From positions 434,001 to 498,000 of the forward strand of contig JAKSGN010000033.1 in assembly GCA_024180945.1 (NCBI GenBank): a DNA stretch of 64,000 bases, read 5' to 3'. This document shows positions 1,625 to 63,500 of this stretch, one piece after another (position 1 is the first letter of the stretch; every line of letters starts with the position of its first letter). The stretch comes from Macrophomina tecta. Taxonomy: Eukaryota; Ascomycota; Dothideomycetes; Botryosphaeriales; Botryosphaeriaceae. The notes under the pieces are model-generated. The model was not told the DNA's origin. It ran no database searches and saw only the letters and a program-made list of their open reading frames with translations. The position numbers were made by a program, and so were the translations under genes.

Positions 1625-2904
1625 AGGGGTTATCCCGACAGCTTCGTGGTCGCAGGTTTGTTTCATGCCGAATTTGTCGATTAATCATACAGGCTGACCG
1701 GTTACCAGGCACGTCGACCCCTCCGATACCTGGGTCGGGCGCGAAGGACTCGAAGCCTTAGTTGTTTTTTAGTTTTTTTTTTTTTTTTTTTTTTTGAAAT
1801 ATTATTCTTCTCTCAAACTGTAGCAAAGGAAAGCCTGGAAGCCTCATCTTTGCGCGCAGTCTGGCCTAAAATATTGAAGCACGGCCAGGATCGTACAAGC
1901 ACAAGGACTCACGCAAACGACAAACTATTCTATTAGCGTATGAGCAATGACTAATCATGCGACTTCCCTGGAGGTGCGCTGCCTGATCAAAGTAGTATCT
2001 CAACGAGGAGGGTTGACAATGGCAGAAGCGAGCTTCACATATCTTCTGTATCTTATCACGCGGACACTAATCGTGCTCAGCACACCACGTCTCAAGATAG
2101 TGGTCAAGCATTTGGGGCGTTTGTGGTTTTTTTGTAACTGCTAAAGGCATTCAGCCATACCGAGTGCCGAACGCAAACATCGGATATCGGGGCCGACTTC
2201 GAGGCCCATTTTATTCAGTAACCTCACGTAAAGCGGTCACCAAGTGACATATCTGCAAGTGTTCCATTCTACCGCGTCTCGCTCAGGATTGTTCTGAAAT
2301 TGATGTTGACGTCGAGTTGGATTCAACCGCATGCCGAAGAAAACAACGGTTTTCATCCACAACCTTGGAGATTAAAGCTACCATTTGCTCCCTCGCGGCC
2401 ATATTGGTCAGATAGCTCTTTTGCCTATCAAATTGATTGAGACGTCCTCGGTGGACCGGTAGCCAATCTCGGCATCACGACTGCGCCGCTGAGGTTCAGC
2501 CGAAAAATTGATTTCCGCTGCACGAATGACTCCACCTTCAGCACATCTTCTTCCATCATCCTTGTAAGGCGACTGAATTTTAACTTTACCTCACGGACGA
2601 AGCCGTAAGAGGCCACTTGTTATGTCTTTCGTCCGATCCTACTGACGTTCATTCGTTGCGGAGGAAGCGGGCTCTAAGCATTGCCGCTAGCTATGCCCAA
2701 AACGGTAGTAAAGCGCGACAAGGTCGGCCGACCAGCTTACGCCCGCGGGCGTAACAAATGCAAGTAGCGACATCTGTAAGAAATCCGCATGGCGACGGTA
2801 GACCCTCAGCCGCCAGCCATGCCGATGGACGTTAGAGCGAAGTGAATATAAATAAAGCTGACCGTGTCTTCATCAAGGTCCGATGCAAGAGGCCATCGTA
2901 CAAA
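1625..2904. other. Gene-free stretch upstream of MFS transporter
   Basis: No convincing coding region was found. A run of 23 T (1773-1795) is the only conspicuous feature. The last few hundred bases presumably hold the promoter of the plus-strand transporter. Confidence 0.5.
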
Positions 2905-14400: not shown

Positions 14401-16860
14401 GGAACCGAGATCATTCCGGCCGCTGTGTATGTCAACACCTTCCATCACGCTACAGGCGGAACAGTCATCTCCGACATTATGCTCAAGGTACCTGTGTCCA
14501 TGAGCAGCGACAAGAGGGAAGTGCAAGTCGTCGTGCAGGGTGAGGAGATTCGGGTCGCTTCTCGTCTCGAGCAGAAGACCTCGTCCGCTGACGATCTCGA
14601 GCACGCCTGGATCCCGCACAGTTCGGCCCGCTGGAGTTCACCCAAGACCCTGCCTCCCAAGCAGACTTTCGATGTGGAGGGGATCAAGAAGCGCATTGGC
14701 ACCATCCTGCCCAATGACTTCTCTTGGACTTACCTGCAGAAGATCGGCGTCTCTGGGATCGCCTTCCCTTGGCAGGTGACCCAGCACTACGGCAACGAAA
14801 AGGAGATGATGGTCAGGGTTGACATGGACCCCGAGTCCCCCTCCTTGCATTGGGACCCGCACTCATGGGCGCCCCTGCTCGATGCTGCCACTTCCGTTGG
14901 TTCTACCATCTTCTTCAACGATCCTCGCATGCGGATCGTCTCGCAGATCGACAAAGTCTTCCTCCTGTCCAATGACCCCCCGCCCAAAATTGGCTACCTG
15001 TTTGTCGAGGAGGCTGCGGACAACATCAGCCCTGCCGCTCACGTCAGCGTTCTTAACGAGCAGGGAGAGATGTTGGCGAAATTTCAGTCCATGAGATTCT
15101 CTGACGTCGAGGCTGCCTCTGGCATAAGCGGTAGCGTTGAGAGCCTTGTGCATCAACTCGCCTGGGTTCCGCCACGGTTTTCGGAAAAGCCGCGACCTTT
15201 AACCCAGGTGGTGTTTGTCTCCGATGATCCGGCCCTCCTTGAGCGATACACCAACCAAGTTAAGGGCTTTGTTGCGCAGGTCCTCCAGCTGAGCTCTGCC
15301 TCGGCGTTGAGCAAGCCAGAGGTGCTCTCCATTCTGCAGACAAAGGGATCTGCTGTTGTCTACCTGCCTGGGCCGGTCTCATCTCTGCAAGATGTTCCGA
15401 CGGCCACTCACAAGTTCACCTGGGAGACGGTGAGCATCATCAAGCTCTTGGTCGAGTCCTCTGCTGCTGCCAAGCTCTTTGTTATTACAGACCAGGTCCA
15501 TAAGGGAGACACTTACACCGCCCTCGCCCAAGGCGCTCTCTTCGGTCTGGGCCGCATTGCCGCCCAGGAGCATCCAGATGTGTGGGGAGCCTTGATTGAC
15601 AATGAGGGATCCCAGTTTCCAACCATGGCAATTAAATATGTCCACGAAGAGGACATAATCCGCATTGAAGATGGACTACCCCGGGTCAACCGCCTCCGAC
15701 CCCTGTCGAGGGATCAGCGCCACGGTAGCGACTCGACCAAGACTTTGTTGCCGAAGCCTGAGGGTACCTACGTCGTGACTGGAGGCTTTGGAGATCTGGG
15801 TCTTGAGGTTCTTGACTTCTTGGTGGAGAAAGGAGCGCGCCGCATTGTTGTCATCTCACGTCGCGCTCTTCCTCAACGCAGCAAGTGGCGCAATGCCCCG
15901 GAAAAGATGCTGCCCATCATTACGAAGATCCAGAAGTTGGAGAAGGCTGGAGCTACCATCCACGCTGTTCCCATGGACATCGGTGCTGAGGATACCCACG
16001 AAAAATTACTTGCGGCGCTTGATCGCCTCTCACTGCCTCCTGTTCTGGGCGTTGTCCACGCCGCCGGCGTTCTCGAAGACAACTTGATCCAGAACACTAC
16101 TGCTGACTCTTTCGCCCGGGTGTTCAGCCCCAAGGTTTCTGGTTCTCTTGCTCTGCACAAGGCCTTCCCTCCGGCCACTGTCGACTTCTTCATCCTCTTT
16201 TCGTCCATCGGCCAACTGGTGGGAACATCCGGTCAGAGCCCGTACGGCAGTTCCAATGCCTTCTTGGACTCTCTCGCCACTCACCGCCGTATCCAAGGTG
16301 ACAATGCTGTTGCTTTCCAGTGGACCGCCTGGCGCGGTCTTGGTATGGCCACGAGCACAGACTTCCTCCAGGTCGAGTTCGATGCCAAGGGCATCACCGA
16401 CATCACCAGAGAGGAAGGTTTCCGGGCTTGGGAGCACCTCGGCAAATACGACATTGATCATGGTGTTGTTACGCGCATCCAAGCACTTGACCAAGGCGCG
16501 CCCGCTCCGATTCCATTGATAGAGCAGGTTGCTCCCCGGAGGGCCTGCGCTGTTGCAACTGCTGTTGACACAAAGAAGGATGCCGAGTCGAGACCCAGTT
16601 CTGGTCCTGAGCTCAAAGGCTGGCTCAACGTAAAGATACGAGAATGCATTGCCGCTGTTCTCATGATCAGTGACATTGAAGAAGTTGATCCTCGTGCTGC
16701 TGTCTCTGACCTTGGTGTGGATAGTGTCATGACTGTTGCACTACGTCAGAAGCTGCAAGGAGCCATGAATATCAAGGTTCCACCTACACTGACCTGGAAT
16801 CATCCCACTGTGGTGCATCTCGTGGAATGGTTCTATACCAAACTCACTGAGGAGAGTTGA
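11451..16860 (+). CDS. Partially reducing polyketide synthase, 6-MSAS/mellein-synthase type
   Basis: Two exons (11451-11558, 11614-16860) give 1784 residues, the usual size of 6-methylsalicylic acid synthases (about 1.8 kb codons). Domain order is KS-AT-TH(DH-like)-KR-ACP with no C-terminal thioesterase. KS: catalytic Cys near 211 in DAACASSL, His near 346 (EAHATS) and near 386 (NVGHLEA). AT: Ser near 657 in GHSVGE. The DH-like fold has GTHPLDGTEI with His near 962; in 6-MSAS this is the thioester hydrolase residue releasing product. KR: nucleotide motif TGGFGDLG near 1425 and Tyr near 1580 (SPYGSSNAF). ACP: Ser near 1740 in GVDSVMT. The family builds a tetra- or pentaketide aromatic with one programmed ketoreduction. 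Whether the product is 6-methylsalicylate, mellein or a relative cannot be told from sequence alone. The upstream spacer is shared with the SMP-30 gene. Confidence 0.93.
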
Positions 16861-40772: not shown

Positions 40773-41921
40773 TCACGCCTCCCCATTCGGTGCCAAAAGC
40801 ACATCACCACCCCAGCCCGCGTCCTTCTCCGCCAAATCCAACGCTTCCTCTATCCTCTCCAGCCCAAATACCCCCCGAGAGCTTAAACCTACCCTATCTC
40901 CCGGTGTTATGTTTCCGTTCTCGACCATGCGTATAGACTTCTCGATCTGCGCCCGATCATACCCCATCTGGCCCCTTACTACAAGACTCTTGAAGACGAC
41001 GGTGCGGTAATCAATCGCGATATCAGTGAAAATGCCACCTTCGAGCACAGCCTGGCCTCCACGCTTGAGCGCGTTGATGCCGGCTGTGATGTGAGGTGCT
41101 GTTGTCGGCCCCGAGGCGGCAGGAGGCGAGAAGTCGACGAACACATCAGCCCCTTTGCCTCCCGTCGAGGCGAGCAACGAGGCGGTATCCTTTTCCACAT
41201 CGCCGGTTAGCTGCACCAATGCCAGGCGCGCCTTTGCGCCGGGAAGTTGATACAGCTTCTCCAACTTCTCCCTGCTCCGGGCCGCAGCAACGACTTTCGC
41301 ACCCATGGCCAATCCCGCGAGGACCGCGCCGCCGGAGAACTTGCCCGTAGCAGGCGCAACGATAACAGTACTCGCTGGCCCGACGGCTGAGGCCTCAAGG
41401 CCTCCAAACCCAACGAGGTGCGAGTGCAGCATTGCCAGATCCTTGAAATGGTAGCCCAGACCACCTGCGTCCCTACTCTGAAAGAGCGAGTCCGGTAGGG
41501 CGAAGCAGCTCTCCAGTGGCACAAGCGCATTCTCGGCGTAGCACCCGTTGCGCCAAACGTCATGGCTAAGCTTCTTGGCGCCGGGCGTGGAGCCCTCAAC
41601 GAGAGCGAGCAGGACCTGGGTGTCTGGATCGTCGCGCGCGGTAATCGTCGAGTCCACCCACACAACATCTCCGGCCTTGAGTGACGTCGCATCAAGCCCG
41701 ACGGCCTCGATGCGGCCAATGGCTGCGGTGCCGGGCGTGTATGGGAACTTGCTTGGGTATGGCGGTTTACCGGAGAAGATCTCGCGAGAATAGGACAGGA
41801 GGCCCGTGTACAGGATTCTGACGAGTGCCGAACCCATGGCGACGCTGGGCCTGGGCACAGTTTTGACCTTTGGGGGTGCGCCAGGAGACTCCAGCGACGA
41901 AAATACCAAATCCACCCTCAT
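40773..41921 (-). CDS. MDR (zinc-type alcohol dehydrogenase-like) oxidoreductase with transposon-supplied start
   Basis: Frame of 382 codons from ATG 41921 to the stop at 40773. The protein has the MDR fold: FPYTPGTAAIGRIEAVG in place of the usual GHE zinc motif, a nucleotide-binding stretch ATGKFSGGAVLAGLAMGA, and AVLEGGIF. The catalytic zinc Cys/His set is not evident, so it resembles the non-zinc, quinone/enoyl-reductase side of the family. The first nine codons (41921-41896) are not native: they are the terminal inverted repeat of the Mutator-like element at 41896-45542. The native start is on the other side of the element at 45574, and bases 45574-45543 followed by 41886-40773 make an uninterrupted frame of 382 codons including stop. 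The remaining gene may be expressed from the element end or may be dead. Confidence 0.8.
   Translation of the reverse strand: MRVDLVFSSLESPGAPPKVKTVPRPSVAMGSALVRILYTGLLSYSREIFSGKPPYPSKFPYTPGTAAIGRIEAVGLDATSLKAGDVVWVDSTITARDDPDTQVLLALVEGSTPGAKKLSHDVWRNGCYAENALVPLESCFALPDSLFQSRDAGGLGYHFKDLAMLHSHLVGFGGLEASAVGPASTVIVAPATGKFSGGAVLAGLAMGAKVVAAARSREKLEKLYQLPGAKARLALVQLTGDVEKDTASLLASTGGKGADVFVDFSPPAASGPTTAPHITAGINALKRGGQAVLEGGIFTDIAIDYRTVVFKSLVVRGQMGYDRAQIEKSIRMVENGNITPGDRVGLSSRGVFGLERIEEALDLAEKDAGWGGDVLLAPNGEA
41887..41895. repeat. 9-bp target site duplication, left copy
   Basis: GACTCCAGC directly outside the left terminal repeat; an identical copy flanks the right terminal repeat at 45543-45551. 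Nine base pairs is the usual duplication size for Mutator-like elements. Confidence 0.85.
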
Positions 41922-41972
41922 TCAGGCCGAAAACGCACAAACCACCCTATCGGACACAATCCACCTCTTGCA
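41896..41972 (+). repeat. MULE left terminal inverted repeat
   Basis: Begins GACGAAAATACCAAATCC. Read outward (minus strand) it contains an ATG at 41921 that is in frame with the interrupted MDR gene. Similarity to the right repeat fades after about 77 bp. Confidence 0.88.
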
Positions 41973-42069
41973 AGGGTGTTTCGCAGGCAAATGCTGGTCG
42001 GTTTTGTCTTCCGAAGGGGCCGGTGTAAAGGTTCGTTGTTACCTATCCCTATTGGGCGATTTATATATT

Positions 42070-42090
42070 ATTTATTTATTTATTTATTTA
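42070..42090. repeat. (ATTT)n microsatellite
   Basis: Five or so ATTT units inside the MULE 5' non-coding part. Confidence 0.7.
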
Positions 42091-42302
42091 GTTTAACGTC
42101 CTTCTTGAGTCAGAGACTATCAAAGACGGGCTTTAGAAGCCGTTTCTAGTTATACATTTTCTAGAGGCTCCTTGTAAAAGAAGCATTCTAGGAGAGCACA
42201 AGGAATAGTAGACTTAAAAGCCAAACGAGAGGCAGGCCTCTAAGATTTATATATTAGCTTTGGTGTTGAGTTTTTAATGTAACTTACTCCTCACTGCCGT
42301 TG

Positions 42303-42344
42303 CCTCCTCCTCCTCCTCCTCCTCCTCCTCCTCCTCCTCCTCCT
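42303..42344. repeat. (CCT)n microsatellite
   Basis: Uninterrupted CCT repeats, about 14 units, in the leader about 70 bp upstream of the MULE transposase ATG. Confidence 0.85.
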
Positions 42345-42414
42345 TACGCCTCTCAGAGCCGTTCAAGCCTTCAGAGCCTTTTAAGCCTTCAAATTCGTTA
42401 CCGCTTTTATCACA

Positions 42415-45291
42415 ATGTTGCCTGCAGTCGGTGTTGTATATGACTCCATCAAGGAGGCCGCAACAGCTATTAAACGAGCCTCCGGAGCCGCCGGCTCATC
42501 GTTCAAGCCGTCCCCTAATAATAACACTAATCGGTGGCGTGCGCGCTGCAAGGACGGTTGCGCCTTCTACATTAGTATACGCCGTCGGGCTGACGGCCTC
42601 TGCCATGTTGTTGAGGCGAAGGAGCATACGTGTAGCCCGCTGGCTAATACTAATAACTCCAAGCATGCGGTAAGCCGTGAGGTGTTGGCTACAGTACTTA
42701 CTCCGTATATGAAAGGCCGTCCTACTGCATCGACTGCGGAGGCTCGCAACTACCTCTTTACTCAGCGAGGCGTCATGCCAACGTATAAGCAAGCCCGGAG
42801 GGCCATGGAGGAGGTGCAGGGTGTATTATCACTAGATGAGCTAAGGAGCTTCCGTCTCATGGAGTCGTTCCTTGCTGAAGCCGAGTTTCCAGACAGTCGC
42901 ACTCGTAATGCGTATACGAGCCTCAACACTATAAGCGGTATACACGGCCGTCAATTTAAGTCCTGTTTCTTAGCGCCTCTTGCGTGCATGGAGGCGCTGC
43001 CGTTCACCATACCGGTAATCTTTCTGGACTCTACATGGCTCAAATGTCAGCATAGCTCGTTGCACCTCTTCATGGCCGTTGTCAAGGACGCAAACAACGA
43101 AACCTTACCTATCGCTTGGGGGTTATACCCGGGCGAAGATGACGTTAGCTGGGCATCCTTTTGCACCGACTTAGCTAGGGCAGCAAGGTTTAATGAAGCT
43201 ACTAGTAAGTATCTAGGCACTAGGAATTCTCCGTTAGCTCTAATAAATTTACTAGTAAATCGTCGGGATTATACCAAATTTTCCGTTGTCTCTGATCGCA
43301 ACGCTGCCCTTATTAACGCCGTTAGAGACGTCCTCCACCTTCACCACTTCTACTGTATTAATCATATGGCTCGTAACGTTCATAAGAAGTTTAGCGCGTT
43401 AGCTGCAAAGCACTTTCGACGGGCTGCCTATGCAGCGAAGGAGGCGGCCTTTTCTCATCATATAAGGAGCCTTCGAGAGGTGAACAGCGACGCCGAAACT
43501 TACGTATCAAATATAACTCTCAGCCACTGGGCAAGGTGTGCGCAGCCAGCAGGCCTCCGGCGCTACAACAATATGACGAATAATCCAGTGGAGTCGATGA
43601 ATAAGCAGATTGATGATGCGCGTCATCAGCAGCCGCTCAAGGCACTAGAATGGATATATGACTTAGTACAGGCGCGCTTCTTTAAGCGGCGTACGGCTGC
43701 ACACCCTAACGCCTTTGGACTTACTACATACGCGGCGCGCAAGCTAGAGGAGCATACGGCTATTGCGCAGCAAATGAAAGCGACGCCCGCTAACGAGATT
43801 GACGGCTCCGGCAAGGTTATTGTGTCTCTAGATGAGGGAGAGGTTCACTATAAGGTGGCGTTAGCAGACAACCGCTGTAACTGCATGGATTGGCTGGACG
43901 AAGGACTCCCTTGTGAACACGCCTGCGCGCTGGCCTTGCGCATGAAGAGACGGCCTGAACACCTCTGGATTAGCGATATGTGGAAGCTTAAGACGCAGAG
44001 AGAGGCGTACCGACTATCGTTAAAGCCGCTAGAGCTGGATTACTTAGTGGAGGGTGAACTCTTGCCACCAAATATTAGAAGCCGCTCCGGACGTCAGCAA
44101 ACGAAGCGTAAGGAAGCGCCAAAAGGACCTGCCAGGCCTGTTAGGACGTACCGCTGCTCAATTTGCGGCTTCAGCGGTCATGGCAAGCTGCGCTGCCGTC
44201 GGAATCCTGAGCCATTTGGGCCGTATATTGGTGGAGTAGGTGTTGATGAAGAAGCGGAGGCGGCCGTAATACAAGCAGAGACAGCAGAGAGGCCAGGCAG
44301 CAGCCAAAATAGGCCTAGCAGCACCCATAATAGGCCTAGCGGAGGGACCGATAAGACTGATAAGACACCTGGGCGAAAATATCAACCTCGTTGCGCACTT
44401 CCAAGCCTTAGCACCGTCAACGTACAAGGCCATGAACCACCAAGCGACGGCTCCAGCTCACCCGGCGATGTAAGCCCTATTGAAATCAGCCCCGAAAGCG
44501 ACTCTAGCGACTCTAGTAGCTCTAGCGATGACGTTGTGCCGCCGTCAGCACTTGCGGAAACCAACACCCACCGTACTCCTCTACCAAGAACGCCCCTGGA
44601 GGACGTTCTAAGCCGTACATGGACTTCACCGCCACTCCGCATACCTTCTACACCTATACTAGGCTACACAGGACCAATTGAATGGCCTAAGCTTGGCTCA
44701 CCATCAGAAACAACATGGGGAGTAATAGCTAAGCGCGCCCGGGCTGTTCTTCAGAGCCTAGAGGTTGAGTTAAGTAAGGCGAAGGAGACGCTCTTTACCG
44801 CCCAGCTAGCTAATCCGCAGGCCAATAAAACGGTGTGGCGTAAGGAGAGTGATGTGCGCTTCCTCAAGTCAAGGATTGAAACGCAAAGACGCCGTATTAC
44901 CAACTTTAAATGCGAGGCTGAATTACAGCCTTATAAAGACCGTCATCTAGAGGTTATAAGGCGTGGGAGAGTAGTGCAACACCGCGATATGTACGAGCGA
45001 CGGTGGCGGCCTCTTCTTCAATATCAACACCAGCAGGGCCAAGAGTACGTTATTCAGCAGCAGCAGCAGTGGGCCCGGTTACTCCTTCAATCGCCTTCTA
45101 ATTCACCTCTCTCATCGGCACGTTCAATCGCAACTCCGTCGCCTCCACCACTGCTACTTACAATGCCAATACGGCTTACTCGCAAGCGCCCGCTAGAGCT
45201 GCCTATTCGACTCTCGCCTCGCAAGCAACAACGTGTTAATAGCTATAACGAGGTTTATATGAGTAGGAAGCAATTAGGCTGGAGGCAATAG
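42415..45291 (+). CDS. MULE transposase with SWIM and CCHC zinc fingers
   Basis: Single exon of 958 residues. The N-terminal region (about 1-110) looks like the FAR1/WRKY-GCM1-type DNA-binding fold, with RWRARCKDGCAFYI and a terminal HTC. The MULE catalytic core follows: VIFLDSTWLKCQHSSLHLF (first Asp), VVKDANNETLPIAWGL, SDRNAALINAVRDVL (second Asp), HFYCINHMARNV, and a later acidic residue in the NNPVESMNKQI region. The SWIM finger reads CNCMDWLDEGLPCEHAC. A zinc knuckle CSICGFSGHGKLRC follows at about residue 581. The C-terminal 350 residues are Ser/Pro-rich, then Gln- and Arg-rich. There are no stops or frameshifts. It mediates cut-and-paste transposition in the nucleus. Confidence 0.93.
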   Translation: MLPAVGVVYDSIKEAATAIKRASGAAGSSFKPSPNNNTNRWRARCKDGCAFYISIRRRADGLCHVVEAKEHTCSPLANTNNSKHAVSREVLATVLTPYMKGRPTASTAEARNYLFTQRGVMPTYKQARRAMEEVQGVLSLDELRSFRLMESFLAEAEFPDSRTRNAYTSLNTISGIHGRQFKSCFLAPLACMEALPFTIPVIFLDSTWLKCQHSSLHLFMAVVKDANNETLPIAWGLYPGEDDVSWASFCTDLARAARFNEATSKYLGTRNSPLALINLLVNRRDYTKFSVVSDRNAALINAVRDVLHLHHFYCINHMARNVHKKFSALAAKHFRRAAYAAKEAAFSHHIRSLREVNSDAETYVSNITLSHWARCAQPAGLRRYNNMTNNPVESMNKQIDDARHQQPLKALEWIYDLVQARFFKRRTAAHPNAFGLTTYAARKLEEHTAIAQQMKATPANEIDGSGKVIVSLDEGEVHYKVALADNRCNCMDWLDEGLPCEHACALALRMKRRPEHLWISDMWKLKTQREAYRLSLKPLELDYLVEGELLPPNIRSRSGRQQTKRKEAPKGPARPVRTYRCSICGFSGHGKLRCRRNPEPFGPYIGGVGVDEEAEAAVIQAETAERPGSSQNRPSSTHNRPSGGTDKTDKTPGRKYQPRCALPSLSTVNVQGHEPPSDGSSSPGDVSPIEISPESDSSDSSSSSDDVVPPSALAETNTHRTPLPRTPLEDVLSRTWTSPPLRIPSTPILGYTGPIEWPKLGSPSETTWGVIAKRARAVLQSLEVELSKAKETLFTAQLANPQANKTVWRKESDVRFLKSRIETQRRRITNFKCEAELQPYKDRHLEVIRRGRVVQHRDMYERRWRPLLQYQHQQGQEYVIQQQQQWARLLLQSPSNSPLSSARSIATPSPPPLLLTMPIRLTRKRPLELPIRLSPRKQQRVNSYNEVYMSRKQLGWRQ

Positions 45292-45323
45292 AGGTAGGGG
45301 TTATATAATACGTGTTTAATGGA

Positions 45324-45393
45324 GTTACTGCTGTTCAACACCATGCCAAGTAATATGAGCGTGTTACTGCTGTTTAACACCACGCTAAGTAAT
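45324..45393. repeat. Imperfect tandem repeat in MULE 3' region
   Basis: Two units of about 31 bp beginning GTTACTGCTGTT (45324-45354 and 45363-45393), differing by three transitions, spaced 8 bp apart, between the transposase stop and the right terminal repeat. It could be a subterminal protein-binding array (inference). Confidence 0.6.
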
Positions 45394-45465
45394 TACCTAA
45401 CATGCAGACCCCGGCGGCTTTCAGAGCGGTAAGGATTAGGCCAGGAACCCCCTGTGAATATACCC

Positions 45466-45542
45466 TGCAAGAGGTGGATTGTGTCCGATAGGGTGGTTTA
45501 TGCGTTTTCGGCCTGAATGAGGGTGGATTTAGTATTTTCGTC
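45466..45542 (-). repeat. MULE right terminal inverted repeat
   Basis: Inverted copy of 41896-41972 with two differences. It too carries an outward-facing ATG, reading to the right on the plus strand. Confidence 0.88.
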
Positions 45543-45574
45543 GACTCCAGCACGATGGCTTTGTACGTCGACAT
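45543..45574 (-). pseudogene. Displaced native 5' end of MDR gene
   Basis: Thirty-two bases, ATG at 45574, encoding MSTYKAIVLE plus two bases of the next codon. The first nine bases on the element side are the right copy of the target duplication. Joined across the insertion to 41886 the frame continues exactly, and the combined N-terminus (MSTYKAIVLESPGAPPKVKT) is a typical MDR start. This fragment is now cut off from the rest of the gene. Confidence 0.85.
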
Positions 45575-45851: not shown

Positions 45852-47514
45852 GTCGACTCGTTGGAGGCACTGCCCCTACCATTGGGATTTGCAGCCGTGC
45901 AGAGCGGGACGCGAGAACGAAGAAAATGCGACAAGCTACAGCCTCGGTGCTCCCTATGCAAGCGGTAAGTGACAGCTGTTCCGTCCTAAACGCTTATACA
46001 CGCCTTGCTTACTTGCGGCAGTCTACATCAGATCTGCCAATATGAGCAGAGCGCGCCAAGTGCATCGCCTTCTTCAGAAATCGATAACGCGCTCACGCCG
46101 CACGGCCTGAAGCTTAGCATCGTCCAAAGGCTGTCAGACCTCGAACCTAGAGCCATCGCCTCGACCTATTCCCGCGCCATACTCCCATGGTTCGCGTTTA
46201 TTTCGGAAAGCAAACTACACAGCCGACTCCCGCAGACGTGGGGCAATGCCAGTGTCGACCTTACTCTGCTCGCCTTCGTAATTGCACTTTTCGACGAGAG
46301 TCCCCGACAATCTGAGCAATGCTGCAGTTTTCGCCCTGATACAATGTCCATGTATCTCTCGAGTAAATCGTGGCTTGCGCTATTAGAAGGCGCTGGGCTT
46401 AACTCGATGGACCTGGTGAATGCCAGGTTGCTGATTACCCTGTTCGAAGTGGTGCATGGATTGTACCCGGCGGCTTATTTGTCTGTCGCTTCTACAATCA
46501 GAGCTGCGGATGCGCTATACGTTTACGGGAGCCAGGAGAGCTCACTGACTCGATCCTCGGATTTGCTCGACAAGAGAGAGGTAGAGAATGGTGCAGATTT
46601 GTGGCGTGGTATTATGGTATTGGACAGGTACGTAACGCGATTGGATTTTCTTCAATCACACTCTCTACCAATCATTTCAGATGTCCTCTTTTCGCTGATT
46701 GCCTTTCGAACCCTCCCTAGATACTTAGCAGTTGAACACGGGAAGTGGCCCCCTGTCACCCGAGGCCGCACGGTTCCACGATGCCGGGTTGCTTTTGACG
46801 GCCGAAACCCCGAACCAGCTTTCTCGCCTTTGCACAGTGCATTCGAAGCATCCAGCCATTTAGATCACGCTCATACCGCCATTCACGAACCAACGCCCCA
46901 GCAGTCGTTCAACGCTGAAGAAGCGGAGTTGATAGTAATGACCTTAAATTCCTTCAAGACAGTTCTGGAGCAGCAGACTGCAGGAAGCTCAAAGTTGTCC
47001 TCTACCGGCCTGGTTCTCGCGAACACGTTAGTGTCTTCTCGACATACCGATGTAGTCACGATGCTGACCCTGGTAGTGGGCTGCTCCTTATTTTGGAGAG
47101 AGGAAGCAGGGCTAGTGGTACTGATAGTGAAAGAAACCGCTGCCGTCTCGAATCAACTGCCGGTTTGGCGACTTTGATCGAGGACATGATGAAGCTTTTC
47201 ACTGGACCTGAGGAAAATATGGCTGCTATTGATGTTCAAACAACATCACCTTTTGCCCTTTATCTTACTTACAAGATTGCCGTTATCGTGACTTTAAGAC
47301 TGCAGTCCGGTCTTGACCCAGAATCGAGCCTGCGAAGGGTAAGAATACTTCGGAGGACCTTACAACTAATGAGTCGGAGATGGCTTGCTGCGGGTAAGTA
47401 GGAAATTGGAATGGGAAGATAATTTGACATTGACTTTACATAGAACGGTACCTTCGGTTACTAGATGAAGATACAACACCAAGGATGCTAAAGCTGATTG
47501 AGCATGACGACTAA
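45852..47514 (+). CDS. Zn2Cys6-type fungal transcription factor, 5' end unresolved
   Basis: Exons that join well are (upstream end unknown)-45964, 46022-46627, 46721-47026, 47077-47393 and 47444-47514. Across the first junction the product reads KCDKLQPRCSLCKRLHQIC, the second half of a Zn2Cys6 cluster with correct spacing (C-x6-C-x2-C-x6-C). The first two cysteines are not in this frame; a CQNC in another frame at 45827-45838 could supply them, but I found no canonical intron joining it in register. The remainder resembles the fungal transcription factor body (WLALLEGAGLNSMDLVNARLLITLFEV, WRGIMVLDRY). It is divergent from the native MDR start at 45574, which suggests it once shared a promoter with that gene. 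Either a non-standard first intron or early decay of the DNA-binding domain is possible. Confidence 0.6.
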
Positions 47515-47789
47515 GTTCGGATGGTATTGGAATATTTAGCTATCACGCGCTATGCGTGCGCTCGGACTGGAGGGGGTTGTCGCCGTCGGATAAGAGGTGG
47601 GAGGGGTGGTTGCAAGCGTCACTGGGTTCGCCATCGCTATCGAAGTGTCGTCGCGAAAAGAAAATTCTGAAAATTGCCGTCGTAGCCAGGCACACCTTTA
47701 CTCGCATAAGTTACTTTTCGAGTATACAATACTATATAATTTATGAATTCAGCACATCATGTTATATTATCTTCCGGGTCATCATTCAC
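47515..47789. other. Short spacer between regulator and ankyrin remnant
   Basis: Nothing recognised; AT-rich towards 47700-47790. Confidence 0.35.
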
Positions 47790-48400
47790 ACAACAATGAC
47801 TTCATTATGCAGACGCCAGATAACCGCATAGTAAGGGATACTTTCCTGCTGGAGCGAGATCCACCGCTTCAAGACCTGCGCGGCCTTCGACAACCCTCGT
47901 GCTTCGGGGACCTGCAGCGTAGTCCCCGGGAGTGCCAGTAGCGGTCTATGCAGGGACGGCCCGGTCCCATCGATATTCGGGCCCGCGCCTAGCACGAGGA
48001 AGTTGACTCGCTCCAGCTTACCGGACGAGGCGGCATCGTGTCGCGCCTTCGAGCTGTTGACATCCCGCGCCGTGGACGATGGGCAGCTTCGTAATGGGAA
48101 TGGGAGCCGTGGTGGACGGCACAGACCAAGCCGGCTCGGTCAAGTTGGAGTCAGCGCCGAGCTCGAGCAGCCAGCCAACGAAGTCTGGGGGCCAGCGCGC
48201 GCTGAAGTACGCCGCCGGAGCGGTCGTCGATCGCCAGACTGATCGTGTCGCGCCAGCCGAGGTGTTGTAGCATCACTTGTGCACATGGCGTTGAGTTTGT
48301 CGAGGAGCGAATGAAGCAGCGCCGCGTTACCGTGCTTCACGCCCGCCAGGGACGAGTCTCCTTCGTCCGGCGCGTCGAGGCACGTTCGCGCAAGCGAGGA
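47790..48400 (-). pseudogene. Ankyrin-repeat gene remnant
   Basis: On the minus strand ankyrin-like pieces occur in different frames: WLLELGADSNL (around 48160-48195), ARHDAASSGKLERVNFLVLG (around 47990-48045) and LQVPEARGLSKAAQVLKR (around 47860-47915). Each matches part of the 33-residue ankyrin repeat, but frameshifts and stops separate them. The island is GC-rich compared with the Copia element next to it. A decayed ankyrin protein is the best reading; the ancestral gene's role cannot be told. Confidence 0.55.
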
Positions 48401-48486
48401 CATTTATCTAGTTAAGTAAAATAAGTCTTATTCCCGGCTGCTGATAGGGCAAGCTGTGAGAGGTGAAACACGATCCTTGTTGTATT

Positions 48487-48491
48487 GAATG
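48487..48491. repeat. 5-bp target site duplication of Copia, left
   Basis: GAATG, identical to 54285-54289 on the other side of the element. Confidence 0.8.
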
Positions 48492-48712
48492 TGTTGGAAC
48501 AAGTGGTGTGACGGCTTATTCAATAGTAAATGGGATAAATTTAGCATGTCTAGTAGAGGGAGGCCGTACGGGCTTCCCTTATACCTATCCTACCTACTAG
48601 GGTGAAACGGGTATGTAACTTGCTTACCTGCTAAGACAGGTGTGCAACGAGTATAAGACATAACTAAATCCAAAACACTACTGAAAGTAAAATGCACGTG
48701 ATTAATCCAACA
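48492..48712 (-). repeat. Copia LTR (3' LTR of the element)
   Basis: 221 bp, begins TGTTGG and ends CCAACA on the plus strand. It differs from the other LTR at about nine positions, all transitions. Confidence 0.88.
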
Positions 48713-51700
48713 CACCCCCTTCACGTACTGCCTATTTGGGGAGTAGGTGATAAAAAGAAATAAGAGTAAAACAGATAACTAGGTAAGTATTAAACTCGTG
48801 AACTCGCTTAAAGTAGGCGGTTAATTTCTAAGATTAAAAGGAATAATAAAACGTATTCTCTATACTATAAGCAAGCGGTACTGCTTACTTATAGTATGGA
48901 GAATACATAAGTAATATAAGGATAATATATATAAGTACTAAAAGAGTTAGGGGAGACTTATACCTACTTAGATATAAGTCCTCTATTAGCTTAAGTAAGC
49001 TATAAGGGTTGCGCCTTATTTTATAAAATAATATAAATAAATAACTGCTAATTGTGGAGTAGGGAAAGTCTAATAGCTATAATGAAATAAGCGTGCTTCT
49101 AGCGAGATAGGGCTTTAGTAAGACCATCTACTAATATTACTACTATAGGCGTCTACTAAAGGTAAACGTTACCTACTTAGGCTTCCTAGCGCAGCCAATG
49201 GTGGTAAATATCTATATAACGTAGCTTGGTGTTGAGCTTTCTAATGCTTTTTTATATAAGCCGAAGCGTTTGCGTATTATCGTATTATATTTTAATTTGG
49301 TGGCCTAGATCGAATTGCACTCCTCTAAAAAGGCGTTTCTATTAGAAGTATTGCTTAGCGGCTTTTAATAAGGTAAGAAGCTCGGCTTTAGTAGTTAAAG
49401 TTATAATAGTAGGCTGCTTAATAGTCTTTTAATTAATAGCTGCTCCGAATATAGTAATAATCGAGCCTTGGTGGCTGCGGCGCATGTCCGGATTATTAGT
49501 AAATGCTATATTACTGCTAATAGTAAAGATATTATTTTCGTCCTTATAGTTACCCTAAAAGAATAAGGCGAGCTTCTTAGTTTCTACTAAATAGCTAAGG
49601 AGCCTTTGGGAGAGCTTAAGGTAGCGAGAAGACGAATTAGTAAGGTAAGATAATAGTGCGGAATAGGCGTACGTAATATCTATTCTTATACTAGTGGCCG
49701 TAAATTGTGCTAAGCTAATTCTACTTTAATAGAGGTAAATATCTTACGCGCTTACGTGCGTGCCTTGGTTCGCTTGAAGCACTTTATCTGAAGGAAGCGG
49801 TGTTAAAGAAAAGTAATTTTTACTAACACCGTAGCGAGTAATAAGGCTAGAGATATATAATTTCTAGAAGAGCTATAAGAGCCTCTGCTCTCGGTCCCTT
49901 ATAATGCGTAAGGCTAGAAACTATTATACTTCTCCTAGAATTCTTATCTCGTAGCGTTTAAGTAGGTCTTCTTAGAAAGCGTTTATAAAAGGTTTATCTC
50001 GCTTGTAGTATACTATAATAACGTTATCTATAAAGAAGAAGACGAATAGGCGATTATTTAAGTATAAGTAAGGGGTATTAGGTATTTAAGTTAAACCGAG
50101 CTCTTCTAAGGATTTATAGAAGTACCGTTACTAGAGAGCTAGTAACTTCTTAAGGCTATAAAGCGCTCGAAGTAAACGAAGGATTTAGCCTTATTTAAGC
50201 TTTAGTTCTTTTAGAGGTCGATAGTATGTCTTTTCCTTAAGTAGAACGTGAGGGAATGCGTTTATAACGTCGTACTAGCGCATTTCTAAGTTAAAAGCGC
50301 AGATTATGGTAATTAGAGCTCGGAAAATCCGAAAGGTAAGGGTAGCTGTATAAGTATTCTACTAAGTAGCCTAAAGGTCTCCTCTTATATAGATACGTGC
50401 CTTAACCTTAGTAAGCTAGCCGTGTTTATTAAGCTTATACTTAAATACCTAGGTAAGTAGTATTACGTTCTTATTAAGGCTTTTCGCTTTACTAAGTGCT
50501 GCTGTCTTCTATACCTTCTTATTTTAAAGTTCCTAGAGTTCTGTTTGGATTACCTCTAGTAGGTGGGTTTTTATTAGGTGGTTGAAGATGTCTTTATAGA
50601 AACGAGGTTTAGGTGGTAGTTAATCTTAGTAAATGCGTGGTAGGCCTATAGGCGATGCTTGCGCTTTTGCTGTAGTAGATTTCTAGAAAGATGCGAGAAA
50701 AGACGTAAATAGTATTTAATAACTAAATATATTATTATAAATTGACGTAATATACGTATCTTTGCGTAAGTTGCGAGTCCTTAATCCGTAGATAATTAGG
50801 TTTAGATTAATATTCGCTACGATATTACGTTCTCTTAGGGCACGGTTTCCTCTAGCGGCGTCTAGATTAGGTGGATTCTCGTATTAGACTAGTATAAGCT
50901 GGCTAAGTCCTTGTAATTGTTAATTCTATTAATCTTTACCCTCTAAGCCTTAAGAGGCTAAGCCTTAAGAGGCTTATTATTAGACTAGAGTGGATTAATC
51001 TAGTAATATATAATCTGAAGGATCTGGTGTTTGTTTATTATAAATTAAGCCTGCTTGTAGGCTGCTTTTTATATACTATTCGCGTGCTAGGCCTTTACTA
51101 GTTAATTTTAAAGGGCTTAGTAGATAATTTAGTTGTGCTCTTTATACTTGGGCGCCTAGGTGGCTATCTTAAGTCTCTGGAGTTTCTTAAGTTAATTAAA
51201 TTAGAGCCGGTGATAGCTTATTACTAAGGTTAAAGAAGACCTTAGAATTTTAATCTAAGGAGATAATATCCTTCTTATAAAGCGTAATACGAGGAATAAC
51301 TACCTCTTACTCTTGATTTTACTTTTACTATTGTAGAGCGAGTATCTTTTCTAGATCCTCTAGAGAGAACTTACTAGATTTATTAAAGATAACGTCTCTT
51401 AAGCGTACTACTTAGTTCTTTAAAGAATGCTAGATTTTATAGATATTAGTAGAGTTATATCTAACTAAATATCCGATAAGAATACGTTTATCTAGCTTAT
51501 TACTACGTAAAATATTCTTTAGTAGTAAGTAGGCTTTATAGCTATAAACTTAAAAGTAAGCTACTTTTAGCTTTTTGCTATAGATACGCTTAAATGGCGT
51601 TTTCTAATAGTAGCGCTTTATTAGAGTCTTATTATGGATATAGACTGCTGCCTTAATAACTTTAGGCTATAGATACTTAGGTAGGTTAGTACTAACTCAT

Positions 51701-54063
51701 AATAATTTTGCTTTAATAATGATTAAGTGCCCTAAACGCTCTAATGCGCCGTTCTACTAAGGGGTATACGGAGCTAATACTTTATAGGTAACTTTCTACT
51801 ATTTAAGCTGCTGCTTAAAGGCTTGTATAAGCGATACTTCTCTATTTAATCTAAGAAAGGCTACTAATTTGCTAAATCTTATCTTAATTATTTGGATAAT
51901 GTTAAGAAGGTGCTAAGTACACTTATTCTTAGTTACGTAAGTAACCGTAAAAGTGAATTTAGTAGAAGCGTATTTAAGATGTATAATTTATTAGTGGTCG
52001 TTGTTGGCTCGTATTATATATATTAAGTTAAATAAGACTCGAAAGAATGCTTCTTCTAATAATTTCTCTAGTTATATAGATTGTGAGATCTACTAGTATA
52101 CCTTAGTGCGAGCGTATATATTATAGTAATTAGGTAGCTATTAATTAGTAATTATAGCTTCTTATACCGCTTATAGCAAGGCTTAAATAGCTCTTTGGCC
52201 TGCGTATATAAAGATTTTATGCTATTGTGTAGCTAGTAACGAGCGATTAGTAACGTTTAATACTATAGCTAGTAGTTTATCTGCTTCCTTATATTCTATA
52301 AAGAAGTGGTTTTAAGCGAAGGTTAGGTAGGCTATAATAAAGTCCTCTAAGTAGAGGTATATGCGTTCTATATCTAACTCGATTCCCTTTTCTCTTGTCT
52401 TAGTAATAGAGACGAGGTTTACTATAAACGAAGATACGTAGGCCACGTCTATAAGCTTAATAGTGCGTGGGCCCTTATGGTTAGTAGTATATACTAGTGC
52501 CTTACTAAATAACTCGATCTTAACTGTAGAGTTTTCTAATATAATGTAGTTATATAGCCCTACGTTTTTTATTTTAGTATAGCGATTCTTTATGTACTAA
52601 TTACAGATATGGTGTGTTGTGCTAGTATTAGTAATCTATAAGAGATTAAGCGTTGTAGGCCTTAAAATACGTTATATATTAAATAATAAGGCAACTATAG
52701 CTAGAAAGAATAATATTTTCTTATCTTCTTTGCCTAGTTTTAGCTCTTATTTCTTTTAAGGAGCGTTGTTCTACTTCTTTTAGCTTTAGCCGTGATTTTG
52801 GCTATTTTTAAACCGTTTAATAGAGCGTTTAACTCTTCTCTTAATTTATAGATCCTCGAGTGCCTTATTAACCTTATCTTAAATCTTTTAGTTTAGTGTC
52901 TAATCTGCTGGTCTAGCCTCTAGATTATAATATCTATATATATAGTAGAAGTGATTCTCGCTATATAAGTAGGAGGGTAGCTTTTTTTCCTACTTCTTAT
53001 TTCTTAGTAAAGTAGTAAAGGCTACTTTAGTAGCCTTTAAATTCTTAGCCGTATTCTGGCGTGAGTAGTTTCGGTAGTCAATAATTATTTTATAAAGCGA
53101 CCTATTAAGCTTATTATACTATAGCTTAATCTTATAGATTAAGGCCTAATAGGTATTAAGAGGGGTAAGCGCCTTAAAAAAGGTGATCTTACCTCGATTA
53201 TTTATAACTTTTAGAAGTTCGAGCTTCTTTACCTTAAATAAAGTCTCTTTCTATTATAAAAGCTATTTATCGATATTTTAGCTGCTTAGAGGCTTCTTAA
53301 GCTAGCAAAGCTTATTAATAATAAGTTCCTCTTAAGTTTTCCTTATTAGCTAGAGCCGCGCCTTAAGCGCTATAAGCTAAGAATAGGGGTACGAATCACC
53401 CCTAAGCTTCTTTAGAATTAGAAGTAGTAATAGGCTTACTAAGTTCTTAATAATCGTTAATAGATTATTAATCTTCTTTTTAAGCTTCTTATACTTAGAT
53501 AGGTCCCTTTTACGAGCTCTAATTTATATTTTATAGCGCTCCTAGGCTCTTTATTAGTTTAGATTAGAGACTAGTGGCTCTAGAATCTTAGCTAGCTCGC
53601 TTAGTTGAGAAGGCTTCGATGGCTTCGATAAGTCGATATAGTCGAATATCTCGTATTTCTTAGCTCGTAATTGGATAATAAAGTACTATTTATCCTAATT
53701 ATTAGCTGTCTTTAAGACAACGATAGGTTTAGAAGACGTTATAGCGTAGTATTACGTTACGTCGTATTATATGCTAAAGAAGGCATAGGTAAGTTACTAA
53801 AGTAGGTAGTAGGTATAAGGCTAATAAATAAGCCGTTTACTTAAAAGTATTACTCTAAGGCGGTGGGAAAGTGCTACGCTTTAGGTAATAAAAAAGGCGT
53901 GTTATAGGAGGCAACTAAAGTCCTCCGTTATAGGATACGTATAGTAAAAGAATACTAAGAATAAACGTCCGGATGCCACGGAACGCTCGGAATAGTATAA
54001 TAAGGTGCTGGGGAGGATAGCTTAGAATGCGAAAGGTACCTAAGACGCACCCGGGCTTATAAC

Positions 54064-54284
54064 TATTAGAATAAGTAGTGTGACGGCTTATTTAATAGTA
54101 AATGGGATAAATTTAGCATGTCTAGTAGAGGGAGGCCGTACGGGCTTCCCTTATACCTATCCTACCTACTAGGGTAAAACGGGTATGTAACTTGCTTACC
54201 TGCTAAGACAGGTGTGCAACGAGTATAAGACATAACTGAATCCAAAACACTACTGAAAGTAAAATGCACGTGATTGATCTAACA
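54064..54284 (-). repeat. Copia LTR (5' LTR of the element)
   Basis: 221 bp, TATTAG...CTAACA on the plus strand; terminal bases altered by G-to-A and C-to-T relative to the other LTR. Confidence 0.88.
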
Positions 54285-54289
54285 GAATG

Positions 54290-54983
54290 CAATCTACTGG
54301 CCTGCTGAAATACGCACAAAACGGATGCACGAACATCGGTGAATTTCGTGATATACCGAGCGAAGGCTTGGCAGTACTACTGCTAGCGTCGCTAACACAA
54401 GTACTTTATAGTATACTCAGGCAAGTACAGGCGAGCTTGGCTCTGCTTAATAATATTTATTTTGACTTTTTGGCGCCCAGCCACGATGGTGGGGTGGCTA
54501 GGATCTCCACAGCAAAATTGGAGGCTCCAAATTACTGCTCCAACTTCTGGAAGCATCTTCCGGGGAAGTGATTTAGTACTTGTCCACCTAAAGTCTTCAA
54601 TTTCTTCTGACCCCGATACTCAGTATGACGCTCTCCAACGCAGATAAACCCGCTAAGCGCACGAGACTGGACCTTGGCGACTCCACAGCTGCGGAATCCC
54701 GTAAATGGATGGGGCCAAACGCATAGCACATGACGTAGGTTGTTCCCCCGTCGGTTTGCCATTTTCGTATGACGCAACTGGAGATGGGACATTCTTGCTC
54801 AAGAAAGAATACCTTCCTCGCTCCAAGGAATCGTTCGCGGTCACTCCACTTGATGGGGCAGGAAAATAAGCCCAAGAAGTTATATACTGCTTCATTCTTC
54901 CAGCGCGCCTTTATTGTTTTTCCTGAAGAGCAAGCTCTTACATTTTGACGCGTTCTCCACCTACTCATTCTCGCGTCAGCAGT
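54290..54983. other. Spacer upstream of epoxide hydrolase
   Basis: About 700 bp between the Copia insertion and the next start codon. No gene seen; presumably the epoxide hydrolase promoter, with the retroelement about 0.7 kb upstream. Confidence 0.4.
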
Positions 54984-60542: not shown

Positions 60543-63500
60543 TCACCACACCATCCCTCCTTGCCGGTGTGTGGCTTCACCCCCGTTCGCGCTACCTCCG
60601 TGGTGGTTCTGCTGGCGTGGGTTGGATGGCTTTGCGTTGGTCTTGGATGATTTCTGGCTGGGCGCCCAATCATCCGCGAAGTCGACCGCATCAGATGCAA
60701 CGACAGGATTGTCCACTCCGGGCGGGGCGCTGCCCCAGTCATCGTCAAAGTTGACCGGCTCGGCGGTTTCGGCGAATGTTCCACTGCCGTCCGGCGGGTT
60801 GCCCCAATCATCGTCCATCAGGTTGGTTTCTAGTAGTCTATCGTCCGATGCGCTGTGGTCTGCGTGTGCAGAGGTAGTATCGACGAGATGTTGTGTCTCA
60901 CTTTTCGCAGCAAGTTCAGTGGTCTGGACCACGCTATCGAGCCTACCGTCTCGGGGCTGTGCTGAGAACATGCTCGCAGCCGTGGTGTCGTCCGCACCAA
61001 GATCAAGAATTTCCTTTTCCGGCTGAGGCGCGACACTGTCGGTGTCGCTGTCGATGTCACTCTTGTCCACGTCACTAGTCTTCCAGGCAACGGCGGACGG
61101 ATTCCAGTCGCCGACACCGGGCTTCCAATTAGCCGTGGTGAACTTGGGCTTAGTTGACGATTCTGGCTTCCATTCTGTAGCATCTGGCTTTAAGCTGGCC
61201 GTGTCGGATTTCCAGGGAGCAGCTTGCGGCTTCCAGTCGACGGTCTCCGGCTTCCAATCAGCTGCCTCCGGTTTCCAATCCACAGCATCTGGATTCCACG
61301 CTGCGGCTTCGGGGTGCCATTCTTCGGCTTCTGGCTTCATCTCGGGCGACGAGACGGCCATGTTCTTGGCCGCAGGTGGCGCGTCGCCCATGGTGACGCT
61401 CGCGTGATCGTCCGGTTCGCGCTCTTCCAGATCAATCGCAGGGACCCACTCGGCAACTTTTGGGTCGAGGTTGTGAGCGCGGTAGTCGTTCTTGAACTTG
61501 CATGGGAATTGACCACGGCAGCCGGGGCGTTGGCACACATGGCCGTTGAAGCAGTCTGACTTTCTGCAAGCTCCGTGATCTTGGCACGGGTAGCCTTGGA
61601 CGATGACCTTGAGCACGTGGAAAAGCTCGGGGCTAAGCGGATTATGATCATATTCACAGTCAATGCCAACAGCCAGAGATGGGCAGTGGCCCTTGAGCTG
61701 GTAGTCATTGCAAGGCTTCTTCCCCGGCTCCTTTACCATAGCGTTGTAGATGGCGTATTCTTCAGCCGTGGGGCGAGGAAGGTAGAAGTCGAGGCGATCG
61801 CCATACTTGTTCACGGGGATTAGGCCTTCGGTTTCCGCAGAAGGGCGCGGGAGATCAGCTGCAGTAGTAAAGGCGCCGTTGAATTTCTTCTGCTGGGGGC
61901 GTTCCGTGGCGGCCGAGGTATCCTTCGGCCTTGGTGGCTCTGGGGTACCTGAAGCCCAGCGGTTCTGCAAAGCCTCGGCAAGCTGGGGCTTGGTCTCATC
62001 CTGCTGGCGGGATCCCATGCTGAGCTCGGAAGTGGAGCCTGGCCTTTGAGCGCGGGAGGCAACGCTATTGTTGGAGATGGACCCAGCCCGAGAACTCAGT
62101 TGTGGGCCGGTGCCCCAATCTTCAGCAAAGCCGGAGGTCGACGGCCGAGAGCCCTCAGAGAATTTCGATTGAGTGATGGAGCTCTTCTTAGCCCTCGGCG
62201 GCCGGCCCCAGTCGTCCGCAAGATCTGACTGGGGCTTCTTCGAGCTCGCGCCCCAGTCGTCACCATTTGATGGCTCCGGAACGTTGTTTCCCCAATCATC
62301 GGCAAATGCATTGGTGTCTCTCCAGTTCTCTGCCATGTCTTTGCTCTTCGTCTTCGGCTGGGGAATTTCGGGAGCTTCTGGCCCCTTCTGAGGATGGCTG
62401 AATTTGCACCCTTTTCCAAACTTGCACCAGCCCTGTGGGAGATCAGCAATGAGTGATGCATTCGAGATGGCACCGCATTACCTTTTTGATAAAATGAGCG
62501 CAAAGTTGAGACCCAGCGTCTTCCACAATGTCGCCATTCAGGCTGCTCGAACTGCTGATTTCCTTCAAGGCAGCAGCCCCATTGGTTTTGGCGAGACCGC
62601 TTTGCGGGTTCGGCCTGGCATTGACGGGCTCAAGCTGGGAGGCCGGCTGTTTGGTGACGGCTCCCTTGACTGAAGCGGCGCCAGGGTTCCATCCTGGGAG
62701 TGCAGAATCACGGAAGACGGAGGCGAAGTCATCGATGGGCAGGGCGAGGGACTGGTACTCGGACCGTTGAGCAGGAGCACGGATTAGGGTGACACGGTCA
62801 GATTTGCCCAGAAAAGAGCTCAGAAGGGGAAGGTAGCGGGGGTCATGGCAGCCAGCAAAGAAGACATGCTTGCACTGACCGCTGTCGGCGAACAGGCGGA
62901 AAGATTCTACGGAAGCAGTGAGCGGAGATGCAGATCCGGCTGCAGGCCAGGAGACGCACCTTCAATCTTTGAACCGACCCCGCCGGGATTTTCGCCCACA
63001 TCGACAAAGTCAAAGTGGTCTTTGGCACCAGTGAAGGCGGCAGCGACGGGAGCGATGGCACGGGCGTGCAGGCCGCACAGACCTTGACGGCCGAGGGCGT
63101 GGGACAGCTGGGCCAGGTTGCAGTAGATGCGGACGACAATGCGGCAATGGTCGAGAGAGCCCATCTTGCGCAGGCGATCTCTGATCTCGGTGCTCAGCAG
63201 CTGGGCGGCGCTGATGCCGCCCTCACGCATGTTCTTGATCAGGTGGTCCTTGAAGATGTAGCCGTCGCCGTCAACTAGGAGGAGGACGAAAGGGTTCTTC
63301 TCCTGGCCGCGCGCCTGACGCTTGTACTTCTCGCGGTTCTCCTTTTCCTCCTCGTAGTCGGAGCGGAGCATGCGGTAGTCCTCGACGAGGGCCTCATACT
63401 TGCGGAGAAGCTCGTGGAGGGTTTCGTAGTACTGGCCGTCCATCATGCGGAACGAGCGCAGCTGGGCCTCGCAGGCGTCCAATTGGGCGTCGCCGAGCAT
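60543..63500 (-). CDS. CCCH zinc-finger protein with Trp/DDWG repeats
   Basis: Three exons on the minus strand (63500-62960, 62906-62482, 62432-60543) give 951 residues. Residues about 1-75 form a coiled coil (LLRKYEALVEDYRMLRSDYE and a Lys/Glu run). FVLLLVDGDGYIFKDHLI begins a folded N-terminal domain common to fungal CCCH proteins. The CCCH finger spans the second intron: LCAHFIKKGWCKFGKGCKFSH. A Cys/His-rich region with CNDYQLKGHCPSLAVGIDC and further Cys pairs follows at about 560-640. The C-terminal half has tandem Trp repeats (WKPEAADWKPETVDWKP). DDWG-type motifs occur near the middle and at the end. RNA binding is likely. The stop overlaps a GTGAGT donor; splicing to an acceptor near 60500 would change the last residues. 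Probably housekeeping, outside the metabolic region. Confidence 0.85.

What the first reader, a model, noticed from the sequence alone, without database searches (positions are those of the whole stretch)
40773..45574. Mutator-like transposon splits an MDR gene and its terminal repeat supplies a new in-frame start codon
The 9-bp duplication GACTCCAGC at 41887-41895 and 45543-45551 brackets an element with 77-bp inverted ends. Removing the element and one duplication copy fuses 45574-45543 to 41886-40773 as one exact frame of 382 codons including stop, with a normal MDR N-terminus. In the present state the minus-strand gene still begins with an ATG (41921), but that ATG and eight more codons come from the transposon end. 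The insertion therefore swapped the first ten residues for nine foreign codons without losing frame, a case of exonised transposon end creating a chimeric N-terminus.
Basis: partly seen in the sequence, partly recalled or inferred. Interest (0 to 1): 0.8.

Follow-up and report, generated by a model that had tools for sequence, protein, structure and literature searches.

The report
Jumping gene cuts dehydrogenase gene's start
A mobile DNA element has landed inside the start of an enzyme gene in what looks like the charcoal-rot fungus; by luck the element's end carries a start codon in the right frame, so the gene still reads as an open frame, but nothing yet shows that it is used.

Summary
A 3,647-bp Mutator-like element (41896-45542; 77-bp inverted ends, exact 9-bp duplication, MULE and SWIM domains) splits a medium-chain dehydrogenase gene. 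The Macrophomina phaseolina MS6 orthologue is uninterrupted and has the predicted 381 residues. The frame now opens at ATG 41921 inside the element's end. Correction: eight residues (MSTYKAIV) were replaced by nine (MRVDLVFSS); the duplication re-supplies L-E-S.

'Exonisation' is not supported beyond sequence. All 16 family ends examined carry the same outward ATG; only here does it enter a long frame. Given that ATG, one insertion phase in three fits; 34-35% of random window points have an in-frame ATG upstream before a stop, though only 9% in an AT-rich block. The new ATG has T at -3, the old one A; a TATA-like box stays behind the element; model confidence drops at the new N-terminus. The insertion looks too young for an intact frame to prove selection (inference).

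Most likely an ordinary insertion mutation with a fortuitous chimeric frame and lost or reduced function. RNA data would decide.

The parts
40773..41886 (-). Body of the MDR (zinc-type alcohol/isopropanol dehydrogenase-like) gene, from the third base of ancestral codon 11 to the stop
   Evidence: ORF; Pfam ADH_N and ADH_zinc_N above cut-off; 98% identity to M. phaseolina MS6 protein P0001 over 97% of the query
41887..41895 (.). Target-site duplication GACTCCAGC, gene-side copy; re-supplies ancestral residues L-E-S
41896..41921 (-). Element end read outward: ATG, seven further codons and two bases (MRVDLVFS + TC), the new 5' end of the MDR frame; an in-frame TGA stands directly upstream
   Evidence: TGA read from the leader printed
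41896..41972 (+). Left terminal inverted repeat (77 bp)
   Evidence: 75 of 77 positions match the right repeat
41896..45542 (+). Mutator-like element, 3,647 bp
   Evidence: inverted ends, exact 9-bp duplication, MULE transposase; six further copies with both ends in the same genome
42415..45291 (+). MULE transposase frame, 958 aa; of the 7 two-ended copies the only one without an internal stop
   Evidence: Pfam MULE and SWIM above cut-off
44155..44196 (+). CCHC zinc knuckle in the transposase (CSICGFSGHGKLRC)
   Evidence: read by eye from the translation; the pattern name is recalled, no Pfam match to it
45466..45542 (-). Right terminal inverted repeat (77 bp)
45543..45551 (.). Target-site duplication GACTCCAGC, promoter-side copy
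45543..45574 (-). Displaced ancestral 5' end of the MDR coding sequence (MSTYKAIVLE + 2 nt); from its own ATG the frame now runs into the element and ends after 66 residues
   Evidence: 9 of 10 residues identical to P0001
45575..45722 (-). Ancestral upstream region with a TATA-like box 148 nt before the old ATG
   Evidence: promoter role inferred

Best explanation
A cut-and-paste insertion, probably recent, of an autonomous-looking Mutator-like element into the first codons of an MDR gene that has no other close copy in this Macrophomina genome. The 9-bp target GACTCCAGC (last base of ancestral codon 8 to second base of codon 11) was duplicated (shown by sequence; the staggered cut and repair are established for the superfamily, recalled). 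The old upstream region and ATG now face into the element and the gene body is left without them (shown). Because the ends of this family carry an outward ATG 26 nt from their tip, and because this insertion happened in the one phase of three that fits, the gene body is preceded by a new in-frame ATG (shown; that it is coincidence is inferred). Most likely the gene is silenced or strongly reduced (inferred). If some outward transcript arises in the element, it could be translated from 41921, or by leaky scanning from Met29 (inferred).
For: Exact 9-bp duplication and 75/77 matching ends. Pfam MULE and SWIM. Six other two-ended copies in the genome, 3 of the 6 also with exact 9-bp duplications. 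Uninterrupted MS6 orthologue, 381 aa; 0 of the 53 homologues contain MRVDL or VDLVFS (some of the 53 are fragments without an N-terminus). All 16 ends examined (7 two-ended copies and 2 single ends, not all at independent sites) have the same outward ATG and 8-residue frame, but the frame runs only 12-42 residues at the 15 other ends against 382 at the MDR gene. One phase in three fits by chance; 34-35% of random window points have an in-frame ATG before a stop. New ATG context GCCTGA-ATGA (T at -3), old CTCAGA-ATGT (A at -3), Met29 GTCGCC-ATGG. TATA-like box 148 nt before the old ATG, now behind the element. Mean pLDDT of residues 1-10 is 42 in the chimera and 87 in the MS6 protein.
Against: The gene body of 373 codons is fully open and 98% like MS6, so a working gene is not excluded. 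Before the new ATG there is an outward TATA-like stretch at -146 and no ATG for 235 nt, as a usable leader would have. In an AT-rich block the chance of an in-frame ATG is only 9%. The model still draws a strand at residues 6-11 of the chimera, and its low confidence is partly built in, because no relative covers the new N-terminus. No RNA data were available.
Confidence: 0.72

Rival explanations
1. Working chimera: the element end supplies both an outward promoter and a start codon, and the MDR protein with nine foreign N-terminal residues is made and works.
For: In-frame ATG, 382-codon open frame; outward TATA-like site at -146 and ATG-free 235 nt before the start; a strand is drawn at residues 6-11. 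[quoted passage not shown]
Against: Weaker start context than the old ATG; residues 1-10 at pLDDT 42 against 87; five to six amino-acid changes on the window lineage, some radical at fairly conserved columns (F>S, L>P, G>D), against two on the MS6 lineage (too few to be significant); chance of phase is one in three.
Confidence: 0.18
2. N-terminally shortened enzyme: transcripts starting in or near the element are translated from Met29, which removes the first strand of the N-terminal domain.
For: Met29 context GTCGCC-ATGG against a weak first ATG, and no out-of-frame ATG between them.
Against: Would lack the N-terminal segment that all 19 relatives in the alignment keep; no transcript evidence.
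Confidence: 0.07
3. The element is spliced out as an intron, rejoining the old first codons to the gene body.
For: By length, removal of the element and one duplication copy restores an exact frame.
Against: No frame-keeping GT/AG pair at the duplication was seen on reading the junction printed (no splice-site program was run); 3.6 kb would be extreme for a fungal intron (recalled).
Confidence: 0.02
4. Assembly chimera or mis-joined repeat.
For: Repeat family with 7 two-ended copies in the genome.
Against: Exact duplication, and flanks that together match one MS6 protein; 13 substitutions private to this copy.
Confidence: 0.01

Closest known systems
Hop group of Mutator-like elements (group 35 in the table of PMC6446971; passage seen)
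   Same: Ascomycete host, one long transposase frame, CCHC knuckle, inverted ends of tens of bp (the table gives 51 bp and 85-99 bp for the two CCHC subgroups listed for Ascomycota alone; 77 here)
   Different: Also has a SWIM finger, which the table lists for a mixed subgroup; subgroup not tested by a tree; the word-based protein search returned no relative at E <= 0.001
[quoted passage not shown]
   Same: A Mutator-superfamily end next to a gene can start transcription into it (title of Barkan and Martienssen 1991 seen in the reference list of PMC4287451; title of Cui et al. 2003 on rf2a seen in the reference list of PMC3882665)
   Different: There transcription was reported; here only sequence is known. 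Here the end also lends a start codon
Ordinary insertional disruption of a fungal gene by a DNA transposon
   Same: Target duplication, gene cut off from its upstream region
   Different: The truncated gene happens to keep an in-frame ATG near its beginning

Membership tests
Mutator-like elements (MULE) | MULE transposase domain | tested here: met
   PF10551, 29.3 bits against cut-off 27.6
Mutator-like elements (MULE) | 8-11 bp target-site duplication | tested here: met
   exact 9 bp here and in 3 of 6 other two-ended copies; the other 3 (L009, L012, L013) have none
Mutator-like elements (MULE) | long terminal inverted repeats | tested here: met
   77 bp, two mismatches
Mutator-like elements (MULE) | catalytic DDE triad | not tested
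   residues were not aligned to a solved or curated MULE transposase
Hop subgroup | CCHC zinc knuckle | tested here: inconclusive
   CSICGFSGHGKLRC read by eye at 44155-44196 (translation); no Pfam zinc-knuckle match
Hop subgroup | placement in a transposase tree | not tested
   one search returned no relatives, no tree built
MDR alcohol dehydrogenase-like | ADH_N and ADH_zinc_N domains | tested here: met
   38.6 bits (cut-off 23.5) and 42 bits (cut-off 31.8); the model's best fold matches include many solved alcohol dehydrogenases
Exonised transposon / chimeric transcript | transcript that includes element sequence joined to the gene | not testable with these tools
   no RNA data held
Exonised transposon / chimeric transcript | signs of selection on the chimeric frame | tested here: inconclusive
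   of 10 differences from MS6 beyond the N-terminus, 5-6 fall to the window lineage, 2 to MS6, 2 unpolarised; no DNA of MS6 at hand

The most novel reading that the evidence does not exclude
The ends of this MULE family are portable start cassettes: each tip carries an outward ATG with an open 26-nt frame, and the left end of this copy also an outward TATA-like stretch and an ATG-free 235-nt leader, so that one insertion phase in three near the beginning of a gene leaves a translatable, promoter-supplied chimera and softens the harm to the host.
Probability: 0.07. Interest if true: 0.6.

Novelty: new member of a known kind. Interest (0 to 1): 0.27.

Why it matters
It is a clean, probably young snapshot of what a Mutator-like insertion does to a fungal gene, with an uninterrupted M. 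phaseolina orthologue as reference. If transcripts do start in the element's end, it would carry the maize Mu outward-promoter effect over to a fungus and add a start codon to it. If not, it is a warning that automatic gene finders may call a plausible full-length gene where the real one is broken.

Tried and rejected
Selection for the in-frame ATG: not needed to explain it. One phase in three fits; 34-35% of random window points have an in-frame ATG before a stop upstream (9% in an AT-rich block), and 15 of 16 ends lead into frames of only 12-42 residues. A second copy seems to split an open frame too (L011, stop-to-stop frames 2500-3288 and 6504-7367; compatible in phase by arithmetic only, not supported by any homologue); its outward ATG leads to a 42-residue frame instead.

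Dating by inverted-repeat mismatches: rejected, since the same two differences occur in 5 of 7 two-ended copies, this one included. Splicing-out of the element: rejected on reading the junction, without a splice program.

Transposase relatives: the protein search scored 7,998 candidates with none at E <= 0.001, although Pfam recognises the domain and the genome search found many matches; that protein search works by shared words, so this is no evidence of rarity. RIP leaking from the element into the gene: not evident; F>S, L>P, I>V and G>A (Gly to Ala) cannot be C>T or G>A changes by the genetic code (reasoned, not computed; MS6 DNA not held), only G>D can.

Papers: search listings, and passages found by words in PMC6829926, PMC3477038, PMC3903597, PMC3806735, PMC3310237, PMC6446971, PMC3882665, PMC3440606, PMC4287451, PMC12810828. 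None of what was seen describes this insertion, but no paper was read whole.

Full report
What is there. The window lies in a 54.1-Mb, 37-contig assembly (G000:C27:434001-498000). Proteins in it match Macrophomina phaseolina: the MDR frame is 98% identical to an MS6 protein over 97% of the query, and a CCCH-finger protein at 60546-62336 is 99% identical to an unnamed protein and 100% identical over 23% of the query to a partial M. phaseolina protein. The organism is therefore very likely M. phaseolina or a close relative; the strain is unknown.

The element spans 41896-45542 (3,647 bp). Its ends match at 75 of 77 positions and are flanked by an exact GACTCCAGC duplication. The 958-residue frame inside has the MULE and SWIM domains above Pfam's cut-offs and, by eye, a CCHC knuckle. 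In the same genome there are six more copies with both ends, two truncated pieces (L015, L016) and more distant scraps. Exact 9-bp duplications are found for 4 of the 7 two-ended copies, this one included; 3 have none. Of the 7, only this copy has a transposase frame without an internal stop, so it is the best candidate for an autonomous member in this assembly.

The gene. The minus-strand frame 40773-41921 is a zinc-type MDR (ADH_N, ADH_zinc_N). Of 4 matches in the genome it is the only close one; the next best is 36% identical. The MS6 orthologue P0001 is 381 residues long and begins MSTYKAVVLESPGAPP. The displaced piece 45574-45543 encodes MSTYKAIVLE. The lengths 32 + 1,114 nt give 382 codons with stop, exactly the orthologue's length. 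None of the 53 homologues found contains MRVDL or VDLVFS (several are fragments). Nineteen of the 53 were aligned with the window: 9 of 19 begin exactly MST(Y/H)KALV, the other ten have variants of it, one of them behind an extension.

The chimeric start. The new frame begins ATG AGG GTG GAT TTG GTA TTT TCG TC|G CTG GAG TC|T: 26 nt of element, then the duplication, then the gene. Eight ancestral residues were exchanged for nine. An in-frame TGA stands directly before the ATG (leader printed). Is it remarkable? All 16 element ends examined have the same ATG at the same distance; the end of a diverged relative (L017) lacks it. At 15 of the 16 ends the frame stops after 12-42 residues; only the MDR insertion gives a long one. 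The 16 ends are not all independent sites: L012 and L013 share a left flank, L010 and L015 a right flank. Given the ATG, one insertion phase in three fits. For random points in the window, 34-35% have an in-frame ATG before a stop upstream, 21-22% within 26 codons; in the AT-rich stretch 47501-54500 it is 9%. The chimeric frame is thus no rare event for an insertion of this family at the start of a gene.

Is it used? Against: T at -3 of the new ATG where the old one had A; a TATA-like box stays 148 nt before the old ATG, behind the element; AlphaFold gives the first ten residues a mean pLDDT of 42 against 87 in the MS6 protein, overall 79.7 against 84.6, with the caveat that no relative covers the foreign segment. 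For: an outward TATA-like stretch at -146 and no ATG in the 235 nt before the start (two small upstream frames begin at -236 and -265 and end before it), and a strand still drawn at residues 6-11. None of this amounts to evidence of expression.

Is it kept by selection? The ten further differences from MS6 were polarised with P0002 and P0003: five fall to the window lineage (V108, A179, A302, S329, P340), one more probably (D367), two to MS6 (H244, H330), two are open (224, 382). F>S, L>P and G>D at fairly conserved columns look like relaxation, but MS6 has H at a column where the window and all 18 other sequences have D, and 6 against 2 is not significant. The element has 13 private substitutions over about 3,450 bases shared with other copies. 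If all arose after the insertion, that rate would give about four substitutions and about 0.2 stop codons in the 1.1-kb gene body, so the open frame says nothing about selection (rough inference).

Verdict. A real, well-marked, probably young insertion of a Hop-like MULE in a dehydrogenase gene, with a fortuitous in-frame start. In the papers seen, promoters within MULE ends are stated (passages of PMC3310237 and PMC6446971) and an outward-reading one at Mu1 is cited (reference list of PMC4287451). The step that would make this special, a transcript and protein from the element's ATG, is untested.

Noticed in passing
L014 (G000:C14:732660-736154): This copy of the element carries 112 private substitutions, 110 of them C>T or G>A, 87 of the 112 in CpA/TpG context: a repeat-induced point mutation signature. 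The MS6 genome paper reports that RIP bias was not observed (PMC3477038 passage).
   Followed up: partly
41896-45542: 8 of the 13 substitutions private to the window copy are C>T before A or G>A after T, a light RIP-like signature in the copy that still has an open transposase frame.
   Followed up: partly
42071-42244: A stretch of about 174 bp is missing from 5 of the 6 other two-ended copies; L012 has other sequence there; an identical stretch lies apart in L016 (6052-6228). Short direct repeats (TTTATATATTA) flank it (printout).
   Followed up: no
L011:2500-3090 and 6564-7367: The C10 copy also appears to split an open frame of unknown function (no Pfam match for either piece); its outward ATG is not in that frame.
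   Followed up: partly
L012 and L013, left flanks: Two copies on different contigs share the same left flank but not the right one, and have no duplications: perhaps recombination, or insertion in a repeat.
   Followed up: no
11629-16860: Polyketide synthase frame (ketosynthase, acyltransferase, dehydratase N-part, ketoreductase, carrier domains) about 24 kb from the MDR gene; no link between them was tested.
   Followed up: no
50001-54000: AT-rich block, 33% GC, against 42% and 52% in the adjoining 2-kb bins.
   Followed up: no
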